Below, piece by piece: positions 24,974-36,083 of a stretch of 43,634 nucleotides of DNA. Both the position numbers and the translations under genes were made by a program. Under the pieces are notes generated by a model. It worked only from the letters and a program-made list of their open reading frames with translations. It did not search any database and had not been told where the DNA came from. The DNA comes from Clostridiales bacterium (GTDB lineage Bacteria; Bacillota; Desulfotomaculia; Desulfotomaculales; VENG01): assembly GCA_016278505.1 (NCBI GenBank), contig JADQBQ010000025.1:1-43634 (forward strand). The letters run 5' to 3'. The first letter of the stretch is position 1, and every line of letters begins with the position of its first letter.

Positions 24974-25007
24974 AATATCTCGTTGAGATCAATGGTTTGA
25001 GTTTAAT

Positions 25008-25105
25008 GGGGGTGGATGGAGTCTGGTGGCTCTCCTGGTCTTCAAAACCAGTCGTGGGGCGGCGATCCCGTCCTTGGTGAGTTCGATTCTCACACACTCC
25101 CGCCA
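25008..25105 (+). tRNA. selC: tRNA-Sec (anticodon TCA)
   Basis: 98 bases with encoded CCA, much longer than ordinary tRNAs. The 6-pair D stem GGAGTC/GGCTCT has a 4-base loop TGGT, the anticodon stem CTGGT/ACCAG encloses CTTCAAA giving TCA, a long GC-rich variable arm follows, then GTGAG-TTCGATT-CTCAC and the discriminator GCCA. The 8-pair acceptor GGGGGTGG/ACACTCCC has one wobble and one G-A mismatch at its inner end. The organism should therefore insert selenocysteine at selected UGA codons. The 3' three-quarters of the gene are duplicated at 35971-36046. Confidence 0.96.
25030..25105 (+). repeat. attL: 76-bp direct repeat inside intact tRNA-Sec
   Basis: Identical over 76 bases to 35971-36046, from CTCTCCTGG in the D arm to the terminal CGCCA. 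The anticodon-arm dyad CTGGT-N7-ACCAG in the repeat is the likely strand-exchange region for a tyrosine integrase. Confidence 0.93.
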
Positions 25106-25181
25106 AAACAATACACATGCGGGCTGAGGGTGTTTTCTAAAGGTTGGAAGGAATTTTAACTTCCTATCTAAATAAGCCCAG

Positions 25182-25241
25182 ACCAGTCGTGCTAGGACAG
25201 GCTTTTGACCTGACTGGTATTGTGTCCGCAACCAGACTGGT
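25182..25241. promoter_or_regulatory. Left-end recombinase/excisionase site cluster
   Basis: ACCAGTC at 25182-25188 and its complement GACTGGT at 25212-25218 and 25235-25241, with start-to-start spacings of 30 and 23 bases. The last is the perfect palindrome ACCAGACTGGT (25231-25241). The same heptamer occurs in the tRNA core at 25047-25053. They lie between attL and the integrase start. Confidence 0.65.
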
Positions 25242-25291
25242 TTTTTCCTTCTCTATTTTGATTTTCACTATCAAATAAGGAGGATTTTTTT

Positions 25292-26257
25292 ATGCCTAAA
25301 GTGGCTAACAAGAAAAAAACGAAAGGTAAGGTTACCAAGATTGAGGATTATAATCCTTCCACCTGGGAAGAAGCTATAGAGGAATTTATTTATTTAAAAA
25401 AGGCTCAAGGCAGAAGTGAAGGAACCATTGATGACTATCAAAGGCATGCGAAATATTTTTTTAATCGATACCCTAAAGCATTTAATAGTTTCAGGAGCTT
25501 AAAGACAGCCGTTTTAAAATATATGTCTGATGATATTAAACCAAATACGTTTAATAGGAGAAGACAGTATCTAAATGGGTTCTTCTCTTGGTGCGTTGAG
25601 GAAGGAATACTTGAAAGAAATCCCTTTGACAACATTCCTAAAAAGAAAGATGAATTTAGAAACGTTAATTTGGATATTGAAACTATTAAGCAACTCCTGC
25701 AATTGCCAGATACCGCCACCTGGTCAGGACTTAGAGACTATGGATTAATCATCTTAACTTTGGATACAGGGATTAGACCATCCGAAGCTTTTTCTTTACT
25801 ACCATCTGATGCAAATCTGAAATCTGGTGAAATAATTATAAGGTCTGAAAATGCCAAAACTAGAGTTGCAAGGACTCTACCAATGAAACATCCGTCAATT
25901 GATGCTATAAAGAGATTACTTCACGCAAGGCATAGAGCCTGGAAAGAGAATACGCCAATTTTTTGTACTTACCAAGGTACTAAATTAAATCGAAAGGCAT
26001 GGCAGGAAAGATTGGTAATTTACAGCAAGACCCTAGAAGTAAAAATTTGCCCTTATGATTTAAGGCACTGTTTTGCCTTACAGTATTTGAGGAACGGCGG
26101 TAATGCATTATCACTTCAGAGGACACTTGGGCATTCTGATTTATCAATGACTAGAAGATATGTGGCGTTAACTGAGGGTGACTTAAAAGCTCAACATAAC
26201 GATGCATCTCCGTTAAATACTTTTTTACCGCAGAAAAGACGAGTAAAGAATATATAG
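25292..26257 (+). CDS. int: Island integrase, tyrosine recombinase
   Basis: 321 residues. After a basic N-terminus (VANKKKTKGKVTK) there is a SAM-like core-binding domain (about 25-110). The catalytic domain has Arg in LDTGIRPSEAFSL, the PYDLRHCFALQYLRNGG box (Tyr in place of the usual first His), LGHSDLSMTRRYVAL with the His and nucleophile Tyr. It should integrate and excise the island at the tRNA-Sec 3' end. It lies 187 bases from attL, facing away from it, with AAGGAGG before the ATG. A hairpin terminator follows. Confidence 0.95.
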   Translation: MPKVANKKKTKGKVTKIEDYNPSTWEEAIEEFIYLKKAQGRSEGTIDDYQRHAKYFFNRYPKAFNSFRSLKTAVLKYMSDDIKPNTFNRRRQYLNGFFSWCVEEGILERNPFDNIPKKKDEFRNVNLDIETIKQLLQLPDTATWSGLRDYGLIILTLDTGIRPSEAFSLLPSDANLKSGEIIIRSENAKTRVARTLPMKHPSIDAIKRLLHARHRAWKENTPIFCTYQGTKLNRKAWQERLVIYSKTLEVKICPYDLRHCFALQYLRNGGNALSLQRTLGHSDLSMTRRYVALTEGDLKAQHNDASPLNTFLPQKRRVKNI

Positions 26258-26275
26258 CTTTCCACTGCAATCAAG

Positions 26276-26300
26276 AAGAGCCTTCAAAAAAAGGCTCTTT
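26276..26300 (+). terminator. Terminator after the integrase
   Basis: AAGAGCCTT, 6-base loop, AAGGCTCTT then a T-rich tail. It separates the integrase from the convergent primase-helicase gene. Confidence 0.85.
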
Positions 26301-26337
26301 ACTTTATTATTCTTTCTTAATACTTAATATTAAATGG

Positions 26338-29334
26338 TCAATTATTTTCCCGCCGTAGCAAATACTTCTCTCTCCCTACACGTTTTGATTCATAACCTAA
26401 CATACTAATTAAATCCTTATTTTTACGTAGGAGTCTGCTAAAGCTATCTTCTTTCATTCCAAGCTTTGTGCGAAGTTCTGTATATGATATTGACTCTATA
26501 CCACTCTCTAAGACCTCAACCAACATTTGCTGTTTATCGTTATTGGTGTGGGATTTTATTTTCCCAACAATTATTTCTTTTGGTAACCACTCTTTAACCT
26601 GAGACCCAGGAAACTTTATCCTGATAGCATCTAAGAAAACCTTATCCTTAGTGAAAATAAAAACCTTACCTTTTACGTTCTCAGTCTGGTTTCTTTGACT
26701 TGTACGGGCTATTTCCTGGCTATAATCAACAATCATATCATGTAACTTCACAAGCTCAACATCCTTTGCTATAAAACGTCTGGTTCTATTATAATCATTG
26801 TAGGTGTCTAGGCTTGCAACCTTACCGTTAATAGCCTTGGCAAGAGATAGATAAAACAACTCAGTCTTATGGAGAATACCAGCGACAATTACAATACTGC
26901 AATCCTTGAACTTATTACTTCCTCGTGTTTCTCCAAAGCTGGCAACCTTTATTTGACTTTTATTGATGTACTCTTTAAGTTCTTCTACTAAATATGTCTT
27001 ATGCTCCTTATAGACTGGCACATAGATTTTTTCATCAGGATACTTATTAGCAATGTTCTTTATTTCTCTACAAAGACTTTGGACAATCTTTTTAAAGTAG
27101 GAGCGAGATGAGCTAATATCTTGACAAAAGTAAAACTCAAGGTCTTCATAGGTTCGTAGGGGTTCAAAGTTAAGCAAGTGATGATTTTCATGCCTATAGG
27201 TCAAGTCCAAATCTGCTGTACCGTCAAAAATAACAGTAGAGAACTGTTTGTTATCAGGGTAGTCCTTGTAAAGTCCAAGTGATAATACAACTTTACCATT
27301 AGTTGGGTTGATTTCCTTAACACAGCCATTAGCTATAATTTTTTCAATAGCTTCCAATGCCTGGTATGGCTTATCCTCAAAGCTGAAAATGATGCGAATG
27401 TATTCTTTTAATTCTGGACTAAATTCAAAATCTTTCTTAATAGGGTTTATTTCCTCTCGTATTACTTCGGATGGTATCAGTAGGTTCGCAACCATACGAT
27501 TTGCACCATTAACTTCTTTAATAAAATCCTTTCTTGCCTTAAAATTATTTAATCGTTTATGGGCTGTTTTCATTAGCCCGTCGAAGCTAAAACTTGAAAT
27601 ATGGTATATGCTAACAAGTTTGGGTTTTTCGTCTATCAAAAGCCTTGTCCTTTGGAATTCATCGTTGTTAACCGTAAAATACTTATATTTCTCAGCAAAT
27701 ACATTAGCATCCATAAACATTCTTTGGTGGGTCATTATCAAAAATGGGTAGTTTTTATAATCAAACTTTTGCCTATAATACCTACAGTCATAACCCCTGT
27801 CATCATATTTACATTTATTAAACATTGGGTTGCTACTATACTGGCAACGAGTGAAACCAGTATCATGAAAGCTATTTGACAAACATTCATGGGGTTCATA
27901 ACCATACATTGGATATGCAACATCTTTCCCAATAGCTTTATTAATAGAGTTAGTCATTTTCTCAACGTCTTTTTTGAATTCTAGGCAAATAATTTCGCCA
28001 AAATCCTTATCTAACCTACTCATGGATACTGTGAATTGTCCCAATACAGCAGTTTTCCCACCACCCATTGTTAATGGAAAGAGATACTCTTCTCCAGTTT
28101 GACCTTTGAGGAGGACTTGTAGAATAGCTTCAATGTATGATTCATGCTTGTCATTGATGTCCTGTCCTATAACCTCATGAAACAGTTTAATAGCGGTTCC
28201 CTTTAAATCTTTCAGGACATTTTTTTCATACTCAGTAAGTTGTAGGTGTGGAATGTCATCAACATTTACCGCTGATGACTGTATTTTTTCAACTGACTCT
28301 GTAATATCTAGGTCATGTCGACTGAGTTGATTAAGTACACTTTGCCAGCCCATTATTTTAGCCAGTTCTTGAAGGGGAAGTTTAGCACCACAACCAGAGC
28401 AATGATACCAAAGATTTTCCTTATCAAACCATGCAGAAGGATTCCTGTCATCATGTTCTGGCAAGCAACAACGGCAAGTAATTTTGTTTGGTTTATCAGT
28501 AACTACATCTAGATGAGTTCTAACTATATCAATAATCTTTTGCGTTTCTTCATCTAAATCCATATCAATAATGGTATTAGTCAGTTTAATTTTGTTGTTA
28601 TTTGCAGCTTTGGTTTTGGTCACTTGACCATCTTTAATGGCAGTGAATGAACCCGTTAAATAAGTCTGAGTGTATTTAATATCTGGTTTCCAATGCACGA
28701 TTTTAACAAGGAAGGGATTTTTATAATCCTTTATATGGTAAAAATATGGCATTCTCATTACTCTAGACAGGTTAATACATTTTTTATCGCCACCAAATTG
28801 CTGGACAAGTTGTTTTTGAACAAAGCGGTATAAGTCCTTCTGCCCGTATCTTGACAGGAGGTAATAGACATGAATACCGTTCTTAGTTTCCACCACAATG
28901 GAGGGTTTAACAGGATAAATGAGTGCTTGGTCTATCTTTAATTGCTTCCAGGCAAAAAGATTTTCATTGTCCTGTTTAATATCATCTGGGGCATCAATAT
29001 CGATAAACTGACAAACAACATCCTGAACGTCATCATCAGTTGCTGTACAGGTTTCCATTTTGTTAAAATCAAGGTTGTTAGGAGTAAAAAATACTCCCAT
29101 GATTCCACCGCAATTAAACAGCTCGTTAAGCCTTTCTAAGTCGGCATTTGACTTGAAGCTGATATTTACTTTATCTTTCTGTTTGCCTGCATAGACATTA
29201 ATACCACTTATTAAAAGGCTCCTTGCTGTGGCTACGGTTTTACCTCCAGGATCTTGAAGCAGACGAATCTCAAAGCAGTTATCACCGTGAATGGTCTTAA
29301 GAAAAGTATAAGCATCAATATTTTGGCAATTCAT
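26338..29334 (-). CDS. Primase / zinc-finger / four-Cys SF2 helicase fusion (island replication protein)
   Basis: 998 residues. Residues 1-230 resemble RepB-type archaeo-eukaryotic primases: FIDIDAP (110-116) supplies paired acidic residues, GIHVYYLL (153-160) the histidine, RVMRMPYFYHIK (191-202) the later motif. A CHC2-like zinc finger spans C287-C290 to HCSGCG (311-316). The helicase part has TMGGGKT (422-428, Walker A), four cysteines (484, 497, 508, 517) followed by YY and FLIMTHQRMF as in XPD/DinG iron-sulfur helicases, LLIDEKP (Walker B), GETRGSNKFKDC and QEIARTSQRN (motif VI-like). A C-terminal winged helix (about 930-998) resembles a replication-initiator tail. It probably replicates the excised island. 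Single-gene operon with its own promoter. Confidence 0.8.
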   Translation of the reverse strand: MNCQNIDAYTFLKTIHGDNCFEIRLLQDPGGKTVATARSLLISGINVYAGKQKDKVNISFKSNADLERLNELFNCGGIMGVFFTPNNLDFNKMETCTATDDDVQDVVCQFIDIDAPDDIKQDNENLFAWKQLKIDQALIYPVKPSIVVETKNGIHVYYLLSRYGQKDLYRFVQKQLVQQFGGDKKCINLSRVMRMPYFYHIKDYKNPFLVKIVHWKPDIKYTQTYLTGSFTAIKDGQVTKTKAANNNKIKLTNTIIDMDLDEETQKIIDIVRTHLDVVTDKPNKITCRCCLPEHDDRNPSAWFDKENLWYHCSGCGAKLPLQELAKIMGWQSVLNQLSRHDLDITESVEKIQSSAVNVDDIPHLQLTEYEKNVLKDLKGTAIKLFHEVIGQDINDKHESYIEAILQVLLKGQTGEEYLFPLTMGGGKTAVLGQFTVSMSRLDKDFGEIICLEFKKDVEKMTNSINKAIGKDVAYPMYGYEPHECLSNSFHDTGFTRCQYSSNPMFNKCKYDDRGYDCRYYRQKFDYKNYPFLIMTHQRMFMDANVFAEKYKYFTVNNDEFQRTRLLIDEKPKLVSIYHISSFSFDGLMKTAHKRLNNFKARKDFIKEVNGANRMVANLLIPSEVIREEINPIKKDFEFSPELKEYIRIIFSFEDKPYQALEAIEKIIANGCVKEINPTNGKVVLSLGLYKDYPDNKQFSTVIFDGTADLDLTYRHENHHLLNFEPLRTYEDLEFYFCQDISSSRSYFKKIVQSLCREIKNIANKYPDEKIYVPVYKEHKTYLVEELKEYINKSQIKVASFGETRGSNKFKDCSIVIVAGILHKTELFYLSLAKAINGKVASLDTYNDYNRTRRFIAKDVELVKLHDMIVDYSQEIARTSQRNQTENVKGKVFIFTKDKVFLDAIRIKFPGSQVKEWLPKEIIVGKIKSHTNNDKQQMLVEVLESGIESISYTELRTKLGMKEDSFSRLLRKNKDLISMLGYESKRVGREKYLLRRENN

Positions 29335-29382
29335 AGAATTTCACCCCATGTAGTTATCTACAGGAGTAGTATTTCACGGCTA

Positions 29383-29461
29383 AAGTGTAACCATGTGAAC
29401 TAAGTTCCTTTAGAGCTTACACTTGACCATTTTCTATATAATATTAACTGGTTAAGGTCAA
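29383..29461 (-). promoter_or_regulatory. Promoter and operator of the primase-helicase
   Basis: Minus strand: TTGACC (29456-29461), 17 bases, TATAGA (29433-29438). Just downstream, over the probable start site, lies an inverted repeat AAGTGTAA (29383-29390) / TTACACTT (29417-29424), a likely operator. The remaining gap up to 29752 holds only the terminator at 29493; nothing else was identified. Confidence 0.7.
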
Positions 29462-29492
29462 CTGTATATTTTTTTCACTGTTTTCTGCCTAT

Positions 29493-29526
29493 AAAAAGGA
29501 GTAAGGTATAAATACCCTACTCTTTT
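29493..29526. terminator. Bidirectional-type hairpin terminator
   Basis: AAAAGGAGTAAGGTA, loop, TACCCTACTCTTTT: near-perfect stem flanked by A and T runs, 227 bases after the stop of the nuclease-like gene on the minus strand. Confidence 0.65.
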
Positions 29527-29752
29527 AAAGCATCCAAAGAGATTTGAAATTTTACAGTATTATTTGGCTCATTAACTAGCCTCAGAGACAGACCATGCCA
29601 AACACTTGTTCGTATGTGCTAAGCTAAGTAAATCACGTATCTAAAAGAAATCTATACGAATTTATTACCGTGTGAGCTACCTAGGTTTTTAAATTTAAAG
29701 GACTTTGACTTTTGAATTTTTTACAATTACCACAATTAACTTGGGTTATATA

Positions 29753-30913
29753 TTAAGCTGACTGCAAAACATTATCAAAACATTTTATTATCAACTGGTC
29801 AATATTCTTGAGGTCATCAGGCGACTTAATGACAATTCTGCTACTGTCTCCATGCCCTTTAGAAGCTTGCTTAACTTCAAATCCATTAACTAAAGTTTCT
29901 GCTTCGTCAAAAGGTATTCTAGCTATTATACTTTTGACCCCTCCATCAAGATAAAGGCGAAGGAACCATTTAAGAATGTTTTTGTTAAATATTCCAAAAT
30001 AGCCAATAGTATCTTTGTAGTTTAATTCAGAGATGTCCTTTCCTGCACCTTGCAATATTTCTTTAACTAGTTCAAAGCATTGGAGTTCTTCTTCTGTAGT
30101 TACAACTTGCCTTTTTGGCTTGTCAGGCTCAGGAGTGCTATCGTTACCCTCAAAGCCATTTTCTGGAACGTGTTCCTCTTTAGCGGATTCTTCCTTACCG
30201 ATTTCTTCTTTCTCCTGGAACAACCCTTGGCTAACAATATCTATCACTGCCTTAGATATTGACTTTTTAACAATTGGGCGGAATCGCTCAATAACATTAC
30301 TGGTTATGCGAGTATCACGGAAGTCCTTTATTAGGTACCTAATAAATTCATCTGGCGGGTTATCAAAAATTTCCTTTAATTTCACCTTCAAGTTAGTAGT
30401 GTAAATCATCTCCTCGGCAAAAAACATTAATTCTTCTGTATCAAATGCTTCTTTCCGAAACTTTCTCAAGCATGTTATATCTGCATCACTTAACTCTCCA
30501 ATGTCAACCTTTAAAAAGGGTTCGTCATCCATCATATTATTAGCATTTAAATCCGTATAGAATTTGTATGACATACCATTAGTCAAGATAGCAAGTTTTA
30601 CATCTTGGGTACTGTTGAAATAACGTGCAAGCTGAGCACTGTGGGTACCTAGTTTTTCATTGACAGGTTTAGCTTCAATAAATATTATTGGCTTACCATC
30701 ATTTAGGATGGAATAGTCAACCTTTTCTGCTTTTCTCTTGCCAAAGTCGGCTTGATATTCCGACCTTACTTCCAAGGGGTCAAATACATCGTATCCTAAT
30801 ACCTGAAGAAAAGGAATGATTAATGCTTGTTTTGTTGTTTCCTCGTTTGTGACATGCTCTGCACGTTTCTTGATTTGAATTGAAAGGTTGTCCATGTCAT
30901 CTTTAAAACCCAT
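29753..30913 (-). CDS. PD-(D/E)xK nuclease-like protein with HsdR N-terminal domain
   Basis: 386 residues, well short of a full HsdR. Residues about 20-160 are the type I restriction HsdR-N-type fold: TKQALIIPFLQVLGYD, then VDYSI (D66) and IFIEAKP (E80-x-K82), the PD-(D/E)xK catalytic set. A charged linker (about 225-270, rich in Glu/Pro) joins a C-terminal domain of about 110 residues (ELVKEILQGAGKD, YLDGGVKSIIARIPFDE). There is no helicase domain and no methylase or specificity gene nearby, so it is not a type I system; it could be a stand-alone defence or resolvase-type nuclease. GGGAGG precedes the ATG. Confidence 0.8.
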   Translation of the reverse strand: MGFKDDMDNLSIQIKKRAEHVTNEETTKQALIIPFLQVLGYDVFDPLEVRSEYQADFGKRKAEKVDYSILNDGKPIIFIEAKPVNEKLGTHSAQLARYFNSTQDVKLAILTNGMSYKFYTDLNANNMMDDEPFLKVDIGELSDADITCLRKFRKEAFDTEELMFFAEEMIYTTNLKVKLKEIFDNPPDEFIRYLIKDFRDTRITSNVIERFRPIVKKSISKAVIDIVSQGLFQEKEEIGKEESAKEEHVPENGFEGNDSTPEPDKPKRQVVTTEEELQCFELVKEILQGAGKDISELNYKDTIGYFGIFNKNILKWFLRLYLDGGVKSIIARIPFDEAETLVNGFEVKQASKGHGDSSRIVIKSPDDLKNIDQLIIKCFDNVLQSA

Positions 30914-30976
30914 TGTTAGACCTCCCTATATAATTTAAAATATAAGTAGAAATTTGTCGAACTCTCTTATAAGTAC

Positions 30977-31004
30977 AAAACCCGTTCACCAGTAGGTGAC
31001 GGGC
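30977..31004 (-). terminator. Terminator after the coiled-coil gene
   Basis: Minus strand: CCCGTCACC, 4-base loop, GGTGAACGGG with one bulge, then TTTTGT. The surrounding 220 bases hold nothing else. Confidence 0.65.
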
Positions 31005-31134
31005 TTATCAGTCAAAGAACTCCTTAATACTTATACAGCTATGAAAATGTCGTATATTTATACATGGACTAATATAACTTGTCCTAACTTAGTTTATTAT
31101 ACTCTGCCTATGCTAATGTGACAATAAATATCTA

Positions 31135-31875
31135 TTAATCAGGCTTGTTGTTACTAATTTGATATTTCTGTTTAACTAGCAAGGGAATGGCGGATTTAAC
31201 CAGATTTCCAGCAATGCCAAACTTTTTGTTAGTAAATGGGCAGACATATGGTCTGACTTTAAAATCTGAATTAAATAATGACGTTTTATCACCATCATCA
31301 CTGAATAGCCCCTTAAATAAACTTTGTCTTGCTTTCTGCTGAACATCAGGGTGATATTTAACTCTTGTTCCGTCATTTTGCCATATATCTTCTACTTCTG
31401 CCCTGGTCAGTTCTTTGGGCAGGTTTGTGTTACTATTATTTAAGGTCTGCAATTCCTTTTCCAGACCCGCTACTTTATTCTTTAACTTTAATACTTCCTG
31501 CCCGTTTTCTTCTAGTGCCTCTTGTCGAATAACAATTCTTTCATGCTCCAATTGCTGAACACGATTAATTAAGTGTTTTATTTCCTTTTCTTGTTCAGAA
31601 ATAACTTTCTGCATAGTGGCAATGTCTTTTTTATTGGGCACTATGGTTTTAGACTTAGATTCCCTCTTATCTGGTTCAGGCAAGCCAGTGCTGAAATTAT
31701 TAAATTGTCCTTCAGTTATCGCTTCTTCATTAAGCAATTCTATCAACTTGCCTTTGGCATTTTCTATAGTGCCCAGGTAAGCAATAACCTTGGACACTAC
31801 TTTACCTTCCTTGTAGTGCCGTTCTTCAATGTAGCCATATTTTCTGTCCTTTTGTTTCTTCCATCTAATAAACAT
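31135..31875 (-). CDS. Coiled-coil protein of unknown function
   Basis: 246 residues from the ATG at 31875 (AGAGGTGG upstream; a GTG three codons earlier overlaps it). The N-terminus FIRWKKQKDRKYGYIEERHY and VVSKVIAYLG recalls the opening of some IS4/IS1634-type transposases, but there is no DDE domain afterwards. Residues about 75-140 are a strong coiled coil (KKDIATMQKVISEQEKEIKHL). The C-terminus (CPFTNKKFGIAGNLVKSA) is compact. It might be a DNA-binding accessory protein of the island. I cannot name a family. Confidence 0.6.
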   Translation of the reverse strand: MFIRWKKQKDRKYGYIEERHYKEGKVVSKVIAYLGTIENAKGKLIELLNEEAITEGQFNNFSTGLPEPDKRESKSKTIVPNKKDIATMQKVISEQEKEIKHLINRVQQLEHERIVIRQEALEENGQEVLKLKNKVAGLEKELQTLNNSNTNLPKELTRAEVEDIWQNDGTRVKYHPDVQQKARQSLFKGLFSDDGDKTSLFNSDFKVRPYVCPFTNKKFGIAGNLVKSAIPLLVKQKYQISNNKPD

Positions 31876-32051
31876 AGTGCCCACCTCTCTGTTGAACTGG
31901 TCACTAATATTATAACTTACATAGTGGGTAACTTCAATGGTAGCTAGGCACTATTACGATACCCTTGAAACGCTTATAATTGCCCTGTAAGAGGCTAAAA
32001 CTACTCAGTCAAGGAATCCAAACAAACTACCCTGAAAGCCATTTGGGGAAA

Positions 32052-32080
32052 CAAAAAAAGAGAAGGTATAACCTTCTCCT
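32052..32080 (-). terminator. Terminator after the second recombinase
   Basis: Minus strand: GAGAAGG, TTAT loop, CCTTCTC and seven T, just after the stop codon. Confidence 0.88.
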
Positions 32081-32087
32081 CATAAGT

Positions 32088-32954
32088 TTACAGTTTCTCC
32101 AGTGCTGATACCTTTTCTTCCTCTGTTGGCCTGGTATAAATAGCTGTAGTATTAATATTTGAATGTCCTGCCAAGTCAGCTACAGCAACAATGTCTACCC
32201 CGCTAGTAAGTAATTGTTTGCAAAATGTATGCCTTATCATATGTGGGTTGGCATCTACAATGCTTGCCATGGTTGCATATTTGTTAAGGATACGGAATAC
32301 AGCTTCTCTTCTTAGACTTCCTCTTTGCCCCTGGAATAGTCTTGTATCATTGGTTAGGGGGCGAACCTCTAGGTATTCTTTAATAGCTTTCCTAACTGTT
32401 GCATTTAATGGCACTACCCTGTATTTTGCCCCTTTACCTGACCTAATCGTAAGTGTACCTTTCCTTTCACTGATTTGGATGTCATCAAGCTCTATACTGC
32501 AAAGCTCACTGACACGGCAACCAGTGTTATACAAGGTTTCAATTATAGAAATGTCCCTTAAATTCCCACTCTTGTGAAACTCTCTTCTCAGCTTGTAAAA
32601 GTCATTTTTTGATAGGGATTTTGGAGCTGTATCCTTGGCTTGTATCTTAACCTTCTTCACTGCCTTGGCAGGGTTATTTGACAGTACCCCTTTGGCAACT
32701 AGGAAGTCACAGAACTTTGTTAAACCTGACAGCTTGTTGTTAATGGTTTTCGGGCTTTGTTTGGCAACTTTGAGAAGATATGATTTATATTCTCTAACGT
32801 CTAGCTCAATGATGTCCTTAACATCAAACTGTTTGCCTGTTCTGCCTTCAATGTATTTGGCAAAGTCAGCAATAGCCCTTATGTAATTTGATATGGTGTT
32901 ATCAGACTTCTCCTGCCTGGTTAATTCCTCCTTGAACTGGTCAACATAGTCCAC
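32088..32954 (-). CDS. Second tyrosine recombinase (XerC/XerD-like)
   Basis: 288 residues. An N-terminal SAM-like domain (YVDQFKEELTRQEKSDNTISNYIRAIADFAKYI) is followed by the catalytic domain with all expected boxes: NTGCRVSELCSI (Arg), HMIRHTFCKQLL (His-x-x-Arg), LAGHSNINTTAIYTRP (His and Tyr). The start is a GTG behind AAGGAGG. It resembles dimer-resolving Xer or element-encoded recombinases rather than tRNA integrases. Three copies of ATTGTGTTGC lie in the 200 bases upstream and could be its sites. It may resolve multimers of the replicating island or act as a second integrase. Confidence 0.92.
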   Translation of the reverse strand: MDYVDQFKEELTRQEKSDNTISNYIRAIADFAKYIEGRTGKQFDVKDIIELDVREYKSYLLKVAKQSPKTINNKLSGLTKFCDFLVAKGVLSNNPAKAVKKVKIQAKDTAPKSLSKNDFYKLRREFHKSGNLRDISIIETLYNTGCRVSELCSIELDDIQISERKGTLTIRSGKGAKYRVVPLNATVRKAIKEYLEVRPLTNDTRLFQGQRGSLRREAVFRILNKYATMASIVDANPHMIRHTFCKQLLTSGVDIVAVADLAGHSNINTTAIYTRPTEEEKVSALEKL

Positions 32955-32984
32955 TGTAAATCCTCCTTAAAAGTGCTTAAAATT

Positions 32985-33093
32985 ATTGTGTTGCGAGATT
33001 TACACCTGCTAAGTGGTTCCTTGTTGGGAATATCATACCAAATAATCAGCTAACTGGCAACATAATTTACATTGTGTTGCCTAATTGTGTTGC
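32985..33093. repeat. ATTGTGTTGC repeats upstream of the second recombinase
   Basis: The decamer occurs exactly at 32985-32994, 33071-33080 and 33084-33093, and TGTTGC is inverted at 33057-33062, forming the dyad GGCAACA/TGTTGCC. The last two direct copies are 13 bases apart. They could be recombinase binding sites, an operator or short iterons. Confidence 0.6.
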
Positions 33094-33205
33094 TAACCTA
33101 CAAATAAGATGGGAGTCCAAAATACCTATAATTAGAGGATAATAGATTAGTTATCAAGAAATGTTATTTTGAGCGGTCCAAATTATCAGAGTATTCATCA
33201 AACAT

Positions 33206-33231
33206 GGAGGGGGGGGGGATGTAATAGCATG
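33206..33231 (+). promoter_or_regulatory. GGAG + G10 tract and minimal ATG-TAA before the 156-aa gene
   Basis: GGAGG runs into ten consecutive G (33209-33218), then ATG TAA (33219-33224) and the true ATG at 33229. The G-run sits between ribosome site and start, so changes in its length would alter their spacing; the start-stop pair is at normal ribosome-site distance. Confidence 0.5.
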
Positions 33232-33699
33232 AAATATAATTACTTCGAACTAGATATTACATTAAACAAATTAGGCTACAACTATGACGATATGAACTGC
33301 CTATTCCATGAACCTTTTGTTACATCTTATAAAACAAAGATTGGTTTTCAATGGCAACCTGGAGCAGTTGATATTGAATCAATAAACATGTTGATGCTAT
33401 TCAAACTACCTTTAAGCATAGCTGCCAGTGCGATATTGGCTGAAATCAGCAAGGATTTATATGAATGGGTTAAAGAATCCTTTAGCAAAGTTATCTCTAA
33501 AAAAAATAGCTTTGCCGAATCTAAAATTATTCTCTCCTTTGATAATGTTACTATAACGATTTATGTTAACAATAAAGATGATTTATTGTATTGCTTAGTT
33601 AACATCGAGTTTATTTTGAAACAATTAGCTAAAATGAAACTTGATAGCTACGATATGGAATTAAATGCCAATGAGGTTAGAATTATACTTGGTGAATAA
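33229..33699 (+). CDS. Unknown 156-residue protein
   Basis: Starts KYNYFELDITLNKLGYNYDD. The middle has a hydrophobic helix (KLPLSIAASAILAEISKDLYEWVKE), then a predicted strand-rich part (KIILSFDNVTITIYVNNKDD) and a helix (LVNIEFILKQLAKM). No catalytic motif is visible and I do not recognise the family; the helix-plus-strands layout faintly recalls small constant components linked to bacterial conflict systems, which is only a guess. The ATG at 33229 is preferred to a TTG at 33169, which has no ribosome site and would translate the G-run. It lies 189 bases upstream of the DUF262 gene on the same strand and may be functionally paired with it. Confidence 0.65.
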   Translation: MKYNYFELDITLNKLGYNYDDMNCLFHEPFVTSYKTKIGFQWQPGAVDIESINMLMLFKLPLSIAASAILAEISKDLYEWVKESFSKVISKKNSFAESKIILSFDNVTITIYVNNKDDLLYCLVNIEFILKQLAKMKLDSYDMELNANEVRIILGE

Positions 33700-33888
33700 A
33701 ATACAACTTTGATACCCTCTATCATTGTCATGCACATAGAATCTACCACTAATAGCTATTTACCAACTACATGAAATTTTTAATAAGCTTTCTGACTAAA
33801 AAGCAAATTGCAAAATACAGGATTTTGGTTTGCCCTATAGAAATTCTTATTAAGAAGATTTTCATTATTTGGCAGGAGGGCATCAATA

Positions 33889-35544
33889 ATGTCTCAAATT
33901 ATTGGAGAGAAAGTCTCGTTAAAGAAATTTTTCAGTGATGATTTCTTTTTTTGTGTACCAGAGTACCAGAGACCTTATTCGTGGGAAAAATCACATTGTG
34001 AGCAATTGTATGAAGATATTTTTGATTCGAACAGAGAAAATGAATATTTTCTTGGTACAATTATTTTACAAGAGGTCGGCAAGATTGGAACAGGTAAAGA
34101 ATACGATGTAATTGATGGGCAACAAAGAATCACTACACTCCAAATTTTGTTAGCATGTTTAAGGGACATGGTAAATGACACATCATATAAAAGTGCAACA
34201 CAAAAAAAAATATACCAGAAGGAAAATCTTGCTGATGGGATTCCTGAACAAGTTAGACTTGAAGTTAGGGAGCAAGATTGTTTCAAAAAATTGATTCAAA
34301 AATATGGTGGAACTAATTTGATTGATAGTGTTGAACCTAAAAATGATACGCAACAGAAAGTGAAAATTGCAGTAGAAACATTTAAAGAAAATTTAAGTGG
34401 TATAAATCAAGAAGAAATAAAAAATTTAATTGAGCATATATCACAAAGATGTATATTTATCTATGTATCAACAAAGGACTTTGATGATGCGTATAGACTT
34501 TTTACAATTATAAATGATAGAGGTCTTCAACTGCGAAGAATCGACATACTGAAGGCTAATAGCCTTCAGCCGACAGTAATTTCTGACCCCAATGAACGGG
34601 CACAATATGCTAGTTTGTGGGAGTCTATGGAAAATGATTTAGGCTCTGAGGATTTTGAAAACTTATTATATTTTATACGAACAATGTTCATTAAAGAAAA
34701 AGCTAAGGAAGACTTATTAAAAGAGTATAACAAACTAATCTTCGATAAAGAGAAAATTAAAAAGGGAAAGGAATTTATTAACCATGTAAGGTATTATAAA
34801 GAGATTTTTCAAAAAACTATTCTCGATAGAGATGTTTATGATACAGAAAATGATTTAAGGGTGCATGCGATACCATACAAAAATTTAGTAAGTATTATGC
34901 TAAATCATTTAGCTACTGAGTGGATACCTCCACTACTGTCCTTTTACAATAAATTCGGGAAATTTAAATTGTTTGACTTCTTGATAAAATTGGAAAATAA
35001 GTACGTAGCTGACTGGGTCATTGGCTTAACTCCAACAAAACGGACAGTAAATATGAATTCTATATTAAAAACTATAGAACAAGTCTCTGATGTCGATTCT
35101 TTACTTGATAGCAGTGTATTAGAGTATGATGTATCAAGATTTAAAAACGAGCTTGAACAAGATATTTACGGGAAAAAATATACGAAATATATATTACTTA
35201 AATTGGAATATGCAACCTCAGAACATAATGTGATTAGACAATATGGAACTTTAAGTGTTGAACACGTCCTACCTCAAAACCCAAGTGATGATAGCAAGTG
35301 GAGAGAAATTTTTGATACTAACGATATAAAATATTGGACAAATAAACTTGCAAATTTAGTTTTACTGAGTAAACGAAAAAACTCTTCTGCAAGTAATCTT
35401 GATTTTTCTGTTAAAAAAGAAAAATATTTAAAAGATAGAATAGTAGATTTGGCGAGAAGTCAACAAGTGTTGTCTTACGATGAATGGACTCCCGAGATAT
35501 TGAAGGACAGGCAAGGGGTTGCAGTTAATAAATTGCTTAACTAA
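33889..35544 (+). CDS. DUF262/DUF1524 (GmrSD-type) putative nuclease
   Basis: 551 residues. The DUF262 part has VPEYQRPYSWE (23-33) and VIDGQQRITTLQ (74-85), the ParB-like nucleotide-binding motif. TIINDRGLQLRRIDILKA follows near residue 205. The C-terminal DUF1524 part has SVEHVLPQNP and LANLVLLSKRKNSSASN, the His and Asn residues of an HNH-type nuclease. Relatives include the type IV restriction enzyme GmrSD and several stand-alone anti-phage proteins. GGAGGG lies upstream of the ATG. As cargo of a mobile island, a defence role is likely but inferred. Confidence 0.88.
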   Translation: MSQIIGEKVSLKKFFSDDFFFCVPEYQRPYSWEKSHCEQLYEDIFDSNRENEYFLGTIILQEVGKIGTGKEYDVIDGQQRITTLQILLACLRDMVNDTSYKSATQKKIYQKENLADGIPEQVRLEVREQDCFKKLIQKYGGTNLIDSVEPKNDTQQKVKIAVETFKENLSGINQEEIKNLIEHISQRCIFIYVSTKDFDDAYRLFTIINDRGLQLRRIDILKANSLQPTVISDPNERAQYASLWESMENDLGSEDFENLLYFIRTMFIKEKAKEDLLKEYNKLIFDKEKIKKGKEFINHVRYYKEIFQKTILDRDVYDTENDLRVHAIPYKNLVSIMLNHLATEWIPPLLSFYNKFGKFKLFDFLIKLENKYVADWVIGLTPTKRTVNMNSILKTIEQVSDVDSLLDSSVLEYDVSRFKNELEQDIYGKKYTKYILLKLEYATSEHNVIRQYGTLSVEHVLPQNPSDDSKWREIFDTNDIKYWTNKLANLVLLSKRKNSSASNLDFSVKKEKYLKDRIVDLARSQQVLSYDEWTPEILKDRQGVAVNKLLN

Positions 35545-35848
35545 AGAGTGGGGCTGCCAATTAAGTAAGCAAAAGGTAGTTTTGGCTTTTCGAATAAAGG
35601 AACATAACTTAAGGAGACAGGCTTTGAGAAAGATGGATTTTTTTTCAAAGGTATGGGGTAAGTTTACTAACTGATTTAAGGAATGGGTTGCTTATATACA
35701 GGTACTTGGTCAGCAATTAAGCCGAGGTTCTTCTAGTGCTTGCGTATGAAATATAAGTTTTCTAAGTATTGTAATTTCAAAAATAAAGGTTGCCCCACAA
35801 ATTTGAAACTGTGGTATAATTTAATTGAGAAATTGCACTTCATAACCT
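35545..35848. other. Noncoding right end of the island
   Basis: About 300 bases with no standard gene. A short frame opens at ATG 35633 (TTG at 35624 with AAGGAGACAG upstream), meets TGA at codon 14 (35672-35674), and would continue in frame to 35749 if that codon were read. Further right is the extended -10 element TGGTATAAT. Confidence 0.5.
35812..35820 (+). promoter_or_regulatory. Extended -10 promoter facing attR
   Basis: TGGTATAAT is a perfect extended -10; a weak -35 TTGCCC (35790-35795) is 19 bases away. In the integrated state it fires only into attR and the opposing host gene. In an excised circle it would read through attP into the integrase. Confidence 0.5.
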
Positions 35849-35908
35849 GACTGGTTTTCTTAAAGGAACATGACTGGTATTGCATAATATTACTTTCTTA
35901 GACCAGTC
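35849..35908. promoter_or_regulatory. Right-end recombinase/excisionase site cluster
   Basis: GACTGGT at 35849-35855 and 35872-35878 and ACCAGTC at 35902-35908. Start-to-start spacings of 23 and 30 bases mirror those of the left end. ACCTGACTGGT is shared exactly between 25208-25218 and 35845-35855. Confidence 0.65.
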
Positions 35909-35970
35909 GGTACAAAAATGATGAGTTGGAAAAAACCTAGTAATGATGCGGGTTTGGATGGTATCATACC

Positions 35971-36046
35971 CTCTCCTGGTCTTCAAAACCAGTCGTGGGG
36001 CGGCGATCCCGTCCTTGGTGAGTTCGATTCTCACACACTCCCGCCA
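35971..36046 (+). repeat. attR: tRNA-Sec 3' remnant
   Basis: Identical to 25030-25105 over 76 bases. The 5' part needed for a tRNA (acceptor 5' strand and D arm) is replaced by unrelated sequence ending GGTATCATACC, so this copy cannot make tRNA-Sec. Confidence 0.93.
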
Positions 36047-36049
36047 GTA

Positions 36050-36083
36050 TAGAAAAGGTTTCCGAGTTTCGGAAGCCTTCTCT
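36050..36083. terminator. Hairpin after the metallophosphoesterase gene
   Basis: AGAAAAGGTTTCCGA, loop, TCGGAAGCCTTCTCT: long imperfect stem at the stop of the minus-strand gene; no strong T-run on either side, so strength is uncertain. Confidence 0.55.

What the first reader, a model, noticed from the sequence alone, without database searches (positions are those of the whole stretch)
25030..36046. Genomic island at selC with exact 76-bp att duplication
Two 76-base segments (25030-25105 and 35971-36046) are identical, and only the first belongs to a complete tRNA-Sec. The integrase sits beside the intact copy and the interval is AT-rich. tRNA-Sec is a classic integration target, but this combination (primase-helicase, two tyrosine recombinases, HsdR-N nuclease, DUF262 protein, no transfer or capsid genes) does not match a textbook element I know.
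Basis: partly seen in the sequence, partly recalled or inferred. Interest (0 to 1): 0.75.

Follow-up and report, generated by a model that had tools for sequence, protein, structure and literature searches.

The report
Mobile defence island in selenocysteine tRNA
This is a real 10.9-kb mobile DNA element inserted in the selenocysteine tRNA gene of an anaerobic Peptococcaceae-like Firmicute; it carries its own replication gene and probable anti-phage enzymes, and it belongs to a little-described family of small tRNA islands whose integration sites appear to be built from copies of the tRNA sequence they target.

Summary
The 76-bp segments 25030-25105 and 35971-36046 are identical, occur only twice in the genome, and only the first completes tRNA-Sec. 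The right flank starts with the selC terminator found in relatives, so the 10,941-bp interval was inserted into selC; the sister genus G001 has an empty selC.

I read it as a non-conjugative integrative island. Int1 recombines in the tRNA anticodon arm. A primase-helicase probably replicates the excised circle. A second, plasmid/TnpI-like recombinase with its own inverted-repeat site probably resolves multimers. A GmrSD type IV restriction enzyme and an HsdR-N nuclease are the likely anti-phage cargo. Transfer must rely on a helper; no capsid, terminase, relaxase or AlpA gene was found.

Eight sister islands in the same order, in Leu or Trp tRNA genes, share the integrase lineage and att geometry. 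tRNA-Sec targeting arose at least twice in that lineage. In about half of the islands examined the attP arms carry extra copies of that island's own anticodon half-site (17 observed, 1.7 expected); the window has six. One sister island shares the second-recombinase cassette at 78% DNA identity, again next to variable restriction-like genes.

It is a new variant of a known kind. Excision, replication, resolution and defence are inferred, not shown.

The parts
25008..25105 (+). attL: intact tRNA-Sec (selC), reconstituted by the element
   Evidence: ARAGORN; alignment with relatives' selC
25030..25105 (+). 76-bp att identity block, left copy; starts in the anticodon arm, ends at the tRNA 3' end
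25179..25244 (.). left attP arm: three core-like half-sites (25179-25189 +, 25211-25221 -, 25234-25244 -), each within 2 mismatches of AAAACCAGTCG
   Evidence: region 25007-25193 is 85% conserved in the G095 selC element
25292..26257 (+). int1: tyrosine integrase (SAM-like core-binding domain plus catalytic domain, no separate arm-binding domain recognised)
   Evidence: Pfam PF00589 3e-27, PF02899; relatives sit beside tRNA/tmRNA genes
26338..29334 (-). primase-helicase: RepB-type AEP primase, CHC2 zinc finger, Walker-A MGGGKT helicase part
   Evidence: PF16793 above cut-off, PF01807 sub-threshold; motifs FIDID, KNGIH, SRVMRMP conserved in the 38% homologue of G074
29753..30913 (-). HsdR-N endonuclease, PD-(D/E)xK residues D66, E80, K82 invariant; C-terminal part resembles the T4 MotA DNA-binding domain
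31135..31884 (-). coiled-coil protein related to plasmid DUF6788 proteins; neighbour of a Xer relative on an Alicyclobacillus plasmid
32088..32954 (-). second tyrosine recombinase (Xer/TnpI-like), catalytic residues present
   Evidence: PF00589 3e-35; 80% identical in the G095 tRNA-Leu island; plasmid relatives
32088..33095 (-). xer cassette: DNA block 77.6% identical to the G095 island; homology stops at the outermost half-site
33056..33081 (.). candidate resolution site: inverted repeat GGCAACATAA-6-TTGTGTTGCC overlapping the xer -35 box; further half-sites at 33085-33093 and 32986-32994
33169..33699 (+). 176-aa orphan of unknown function upstream of gmrSD
   Evidence: no match in Pfam/PHROGs/PADLOC/NCBIfam, plasmids or order-mates
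33889..35544 (+). GmrSD: fused DUF262-DUF1524 type IV restriction enzyme, all published motifs intact
   Evidence: PF03235 1e-35, PF07510 1e-24; PADLOC Orf5/HEC-06; motifs from PMC4619093
35848..35909 (.). right attP arm: three core-like half-sites (35848-35858 -, 35871-35881 -, 35899-35909 +)
35971..36046 (+). attR: displaced 3' part of the original selC, followed by the original selC terminator (about 36052-36080)

Best explanation
A 10.9-kb integrative, non-conjugative mobile island sits in selC. SHOWN: the att duplication; displacement of the host selC terminator; an integrase lineage shared with other tRNA islands of the order that have the same att geometry; intact catalytic motifs in both nucleases and intact reading frames. 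INFERRED: (1) Int1 exchanges strands in the anticodon loop of tRNA-Sec and uses extra copies of the anticodon half-site in both attP arms to assemble its complex. (2) On excision the AEP primase-helicase replicates the circle. (3) The second recombinase acts at its own inverted-repeat site, which overlaps its own promoter, and resolves multimers of that circle, as plasmid Xer or TnpI systems do. (4) GmrSD, and probably the HsdR-N nuclease, protect the host from phages, perhaps ones with modified DNA. (5) Cell-to-cell transfer needs a helper, since no transfer or packaging genes are seen.
For: Exact att pair, unique in the genome. Empty selC in the sister genus and selC terminators at attR. Nine islands (window, L071, L074, L075, L077, L078, L083, L084, L085) with 35-76 bp att blocks, 6.2-10.9 kb apart, all starting in or near the anticodon arm. 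Own half-site in the arms: 6 in the window against 0.14 expected, 17 against 1.74 over 16 islands, own motif 1.06 per island against 0.05 for other islands' motifs. The xer cassette is 78% identical at DNA level to the G095 tRNA-Leu island; an inverted repeat plus a half-site 86-89 bp further on, at matching positions, lies upstream of four xer genes, one of which (G025) has a wholly different sequence. xer and DUF6788 are neighbours on a plasmid, and an xer relative lies beside a Tn3-family transposase. GmrSD motifs VIDGQQRITTLQILL, VEHVLPQ, LANLVLL...N and NLDFSVKK match PMC4619093. Nuclease D66/E80/K82 are invariant; its relatives lie between the integrase and regulatory genes of prophage-like regions.
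Against: No genome shows an empty site with both flanks. No excisionase or RDF gene was recognised. Only one full-length relative of the primase-helicase exists in the genomes searched, and its AlphaFold model was useless (pLDDT 36), so replication function rests on motifs. Arm half-sites pass the 2-mismatch test in about half of the islands only. The inverted repeat alone is borderline against shuffles in the window (p about 0.07); its weight comes from conserved position and repetition. Nothing here shows activity.
Confidence: 0.75

Rival explanations
1. It is a phage satellite (P4- or PICI-like) of a Firmicute: packaged by a helper phage, with a divergent set of hijacking genes.
For: Size, integrase beside the tRNA, primase-helicase and a defence-rich end all resemble P4/PICI (PMC8628076, PMC9122126). 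The integrase has a 42% relative in a Moorella phage and the nuclease is found in a range of phages.
Against: No psu, sid, delta, AlpA, terminase or capsid gene. No relative of the primase or xer in 2.9 million viral contigs at the sensitivity of that search.
Confidence: 0.25
2. It is an integrated plasmid: a replicating element of plasmid descent (primase, DUF6788, Xer resolution) that acquired a tRNA integrase and spends most of its time in the chromosome.
For: xer and DUF6788 relatives lie side by side on a plasmid, and xer relatives are on many Firmicute plasmids.
Against: No partition genes or typed replicon; the primase has only partial relatives on plasmids.
Confidence: 0.35
3. It is an immobile remnant: once a mobile island, now fixed for its defence genes.
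For: Several selC islands in relatives are decayed: int1 broken in G095 and a fragment in G086.
Against: All seven genes here are intact, the two att copies have no mismatch in 76 bp, and the arm sites are preserved.
Confidence: 0.2
4. The second recombinase is not a resolvase but exchanges cargo: its site marks the junction where new defence genes are loaded.
For: Homology between islands stops at the edge of the site, with different cargo beyond it in the window, G095 and G088.
Against: There is one site per island, not a pair around the cargo; the same boundary is expected if cargo is simply gained by ordinary recombination.
Confidence: 0.15

Closest known systems
tRNA/tmRNA genomic islands with tyrosine integrases (Islander class; anticodon-centred sites)
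   Same: Intact tDNA on the integrase side, displaced 3' fragment at the other end, crossover region in the anticodon arm (PMC4383910).
   Different: Here a second recombinase with its own site is present, and the attP arms hold copies of the core half-site that follow the target tRNA.
P4-like satellites
   Same: About 11 kb, integrase at a tRNA, primase-helicase, hotspot of defence genes (PMC8628076, PMC9122126).
   Different: None of psu, delta, sid, epsilon or alpA; unrelated primase (RepB-type plus CHC2 zinc finger); Firmicute host.
TnpI/IRS resolution system of Tn4430-type transposons, and plasmid Xer systems
   Same: Tyrosine recombinase with an inverted-repeat site and extra half-sites in its own promoter region; one relative lies beside a Tn3-family transposase. 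The TnpI-IRS layout is from memory; the literature search found no detailed paper.
   Different: No Tn3 transposase here; the recombinase sits inside a tRNA island with a separate integrase.
GmrSD / BrxU type IV restriction enzymes
   Same: Fused DUF262-DUF1524 with every published motif (PMC4619093).
   Different: Only the carrier differs; substrate unknown.
Archaeal pT26-2-type integrases
   Same: One integrase lineage spread over many tRNA genes, with target switching within tRNAs that have, or lack, a long variable arm (PMC8371274); 10 of 11 targets in the window's clade have a long arm, against 1 of 6 in the neighbouring clade.
   Different: Not the suicidal type; the integrase gene here stays intact on integration.

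Membership tests
tRNA genomic island (tyrosine integrase) | intact tDNA, integrase and displaced tDNA fragment in the same orientation | tested here: met
tRNA genomic island (tyrosine integrase) | unoccupied target in relatives | tested here: met
   G001 selC is a single copy followed by a terminator; joined two-flank empty site not found
tRNA genomic island (tyrosine integrase) | excised circle with attP | not testable with these tools
   no reads available
P4-like satellite | psu, delta, sid, epsilon, alpha, alpA set | tested here: not met
   no hits in Pfam, PHROGs, NCBIfam or PADLOC; component list from PMC8628076
PICI | AlpA regulator and packaging-interference genes | tested here: not met
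   none among the seven genes; very small ORFs were not scanned
ICE / IME | relaxase or type IV secretion genes | tested here: not met
   none hit
GmrSD type IV restriction enzyme | DUF262 and DUF1524 with DGQQR, (E/D)H.xPQ, L(G/A)NLxLLxxxN and NxxFxxKK motifs | tested here: met
   Pfam, motifs
GmrSD type IV restriction enzyme | cleavage of modified DNA only | not testable with these tools
   needs biochemistry
TnpI-type / plasmid Xer resolution system | tyrosine recombinase adjacent to an inverted-repeat core with accessory half-sites | tested here: met
TnpI-type / plasmid Xer resolution system | resolves two-site substrates | not testable with these tools
   needs assay
TnpI-type / plasmid Xer resolution system | Tn3-family transposase (for Tn4430-like transposon membership) | tested here: not met
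   no transposase in the island
AEP (RepB-type) primase | DxD, H and R motif residues | tested here: met
   PF16793 above cut-off; motifs conserved in G074 and visible in the G088 primase

The most novel reading that the evidence does not exclude
These islands use an integrase with no separate arm-binding domain that builds its whole attP from one motif, the anticodon half-site of its target tRNA. Moving to a new tRNA therefore means rewriting the core and the arms together with the integrase, as one exchangeable end module. A second, self-contained recombinase cassette resolves the replicating circle next to a variable defence region.
Probability: 0.35. Interest if true: 0.65.

Novelty: new variant of a known kind. 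Interest (0 to 1): 0.5.

Why it matters
Most small tRNA islands have no explained route of movement: PMC4383910 notes that about 71% of its mapped islands are not prophages by PHAST. This gives a defined family with precise ends, many targets and comparable members, so target switching can be studied directly: tRNA-Sec targeting arose at least twice, and two islands in one genome (G028) share a 7-kb backbone of about 83-100% identity but have different integrase ends. If the arm sites really follow the target tRNA, it is a simple rule by which integrases change target. The islands also carry restriction-type genes in hosts where defence is little studied.

Tried and rejected
Searching for a two-flank empty site: the right-hand metallophosphoesterase gene is not beside selC in any of the relatives that hold it. 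Viral contigs for the primase and xer: nothing. Solved-structure sequence search for the primase and nuclease: no hit. AlphaFold of the primase-helicase: pLDDT 36, not used further. Inverted repeats upstream of more distant plasmid xer genes (L137-L141) and of G051: none convincing; G074 shows repeated TATGACGAA half-sites but no clear inverted repeat. A cargo cassette bounded by two xer sites: only one site found. The 176-aa protein at 33169: no relatives anywhere searched.
Full report
CHECK OF THE OBSERVATION. The two 76-base segments are identical, tRNA-Sec is complete only at 25008-25105, and no third copy exists in the 3.92-Mb genome. The 10,941-bp interval has 30-40% GC per kb, lower than its flanks.

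WHICH SIDE IS HOST. selC stands next to ispA-cysG-hemA in most relatives examined. In the sister genus G001 selC is a single copy with a terminator directly downstream. The window's right-hand copy is followed by about 33 bp that align with the selC terminators of relatives, whereas the DNA after the intact left copy does not. That DNA instead aligns at 85% with the integrase-bearing selC element of G095. So the tRNA 3' part plus terminator was pushed 10.9 kb to the right by an insertion that rebuilt the tRNA. An empty site joining both flanks was not found, since the right-hand gene is elsewhere in relatives.

GENES. In order: int1 (+); a 998-aa protein with a RepB-type AEP primase domain, a CHC2 zinc finger and a Walker-A helicase part (-); an HsdR-N nuclease (-); a coiled-coil protein related to plasmid DUF6788 proteins (-); a second tyrosine recombinase (-); a 176-aa orphan (+); GmrSD (+). 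GmrSD carries every motif listed for the family in PMC4619093. The nuclease keeps D66, E80 and K82 in all eight proteins aligned. Its model (pLDDT 79) matches type I/DrdV-like nucleases at the N-terminus and the T4 MotA DNA-binding domain at the C-terminus, with modest scores; a role in reading modified DNA is speculation. Close relatives lie in prophage-like regions of G003 and G090 between integrase and regulatory genes.

A FAMILY OF ISLANDS. Relatives of int1 at 40-56% identity in the same order nearly all start just downstream of a tRNA or tmRNA gene. Eight of these loci, besides the window, have a detectable att pair 6.2-9.9 kb apart. In all nine the identity block begins at or near the 5' side of the anticodon arm and runs to the tRNA 3' end. 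Several of the others carry a Prim-Pol or DnaC/IstB-type replication gene in the middle, so the replication module varies. A tree of the integrases requires at least two origins of tRNA-Sec targeting: the G009 selC integrase nests among tRNA-Leu integrases, away from the window's. In G028 two islands, in tRNA-Trp and tRNA-Leu, have backbones 83-100% identical per 200 bp, but the identity falls to 62-74% within the integrase gene and ends before each tRNA: the end module was exchanged.

ARM SITES. The window's core half-site is AAAACCAGTCG. Three further copies with at most two mismatches lie in each attP arm: six in all, 0.14 expected from dinucleotide shuffles. Over 16 islands the total is 17 against 1.74 expected (largest of 1000 shuffles: 8). 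Each island's arms match its own half-site (1.06 per island) far more often than those of islands with different tRNAs (0.05). Int1 has the core-binding and catalytic domains only, which would explain why arms and core use one motif. About half of the islands show no arm copy at this threshold, so the rule is not yet general.

THE SECOND RECOMBINASE. A 1008-bp block, 32088-33095, containing xer and about 140 bp upstream is 77.6% identical in DNA to the G095 tRNA-Leu island, and the homology stops on both sides. The upstream part holds an inverted repeat (33056-33081) that overlaps the -35 box of xer, plus further half-sites. G095, G088 and, with a wholly different sequence, G025 have the same layout, with a half-site 86-89 bp beyond the start of the inverted repeat. 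Relatives of xer are on Firmicute plasmids; one lies beside a DUF6788 gene, as here, and one beside a Tn3-family transposase. I take it to be a TnpI/Xer-type multimer resolution system for the replicating circle. In the window, G095 and G088 the DNA beyond the site is different cargo: GmrSD; a GHKL-type ATPase (read from sequence) with an Mrr-like type IV nuclease; an ATPase with a PIN-like protein (read from sequence). A cargo-loading role is therefore possible but less likely, as only one site per island was found.

MECHANISM AND LIMITS. Shown: integration, ends, intact genes, conserved sites, family. Inferred: excision, replication, resolution, defence, helper-dependent transfer. Membership tests fail for P4-like satellites, PICIs and ICE/IMEs, and pass for a tRNA genomic island, GmrSD and the layout of a TnpI/Xer resolution site.

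Noticed in passing
L039 9007-11250 (G074, JAILZP010000042.1): A 747-aa protein with a GHKL ATPase and a Spo11/Topo VI-A Toprim domain (Topo VIII-like) sits next to the only full-length relative of the window's primase-helicase, with two tyrosine recombinases nearby.
   Followed up: partly
L084 and L085 (G028): Two islands in one near-complete genome, in tRNA-Trp and tRNA-Leu, share a 7.3-kb backbone at 92% overall identity but have different integrase ends; it looks like an end-module exchange.
   Followed up: partly
G000:C14:65380-66285 (L087 15393-16310): The window's own genome has a second, distant int1 relative (about 35%) downstream of a tRNA-Gly.
   Followed up: no
L143 2790-3891 (Moorella phage MTATph1, OR602862.1): A 177-kb Moorella phage carries a 42% int1 relative directly after an annotated tRNA gene, as in the islands.
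   Followed up: no
L105 1-8898 and L043 (G003:C4): G003 has a selC fragment at its contig end about 47 kb from selC, with a different integrase and a 65-81% identical but frame-shifted copy of the HsdR-N nuclease: selC also seems to receive a prophage-sized element.
   Followed up: partly
L070 (G009), L046/L047/L086 (G095), L041 (G020), L042 (G060): selC is an integration hotspot in the order: a G009 island with another primase, a broken int1 in G095, and extra selC fragments 4.9 kb and 1.8 kb downstream of selC in G020 and G060.
   Followed up: partly
L078 8560-18561 (G095:C19): A 9.9-kb tRNA-Leu island with a GHKL-type ATPase, a 317-aa protein, an Mrr-like type IV nuclease and a 190-aa possible restriction enzyme in one cluster: a candidate multi-gene defence system.
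   Followed up: partly
window 29753-30100 (C-terminal part of the nuclease): The nuclease model's C-terminal domain matches the T4 MotA DNA-binding domain and YjbR folds, an unusual partner for an HsdR-N domain.
   Followed up: partly
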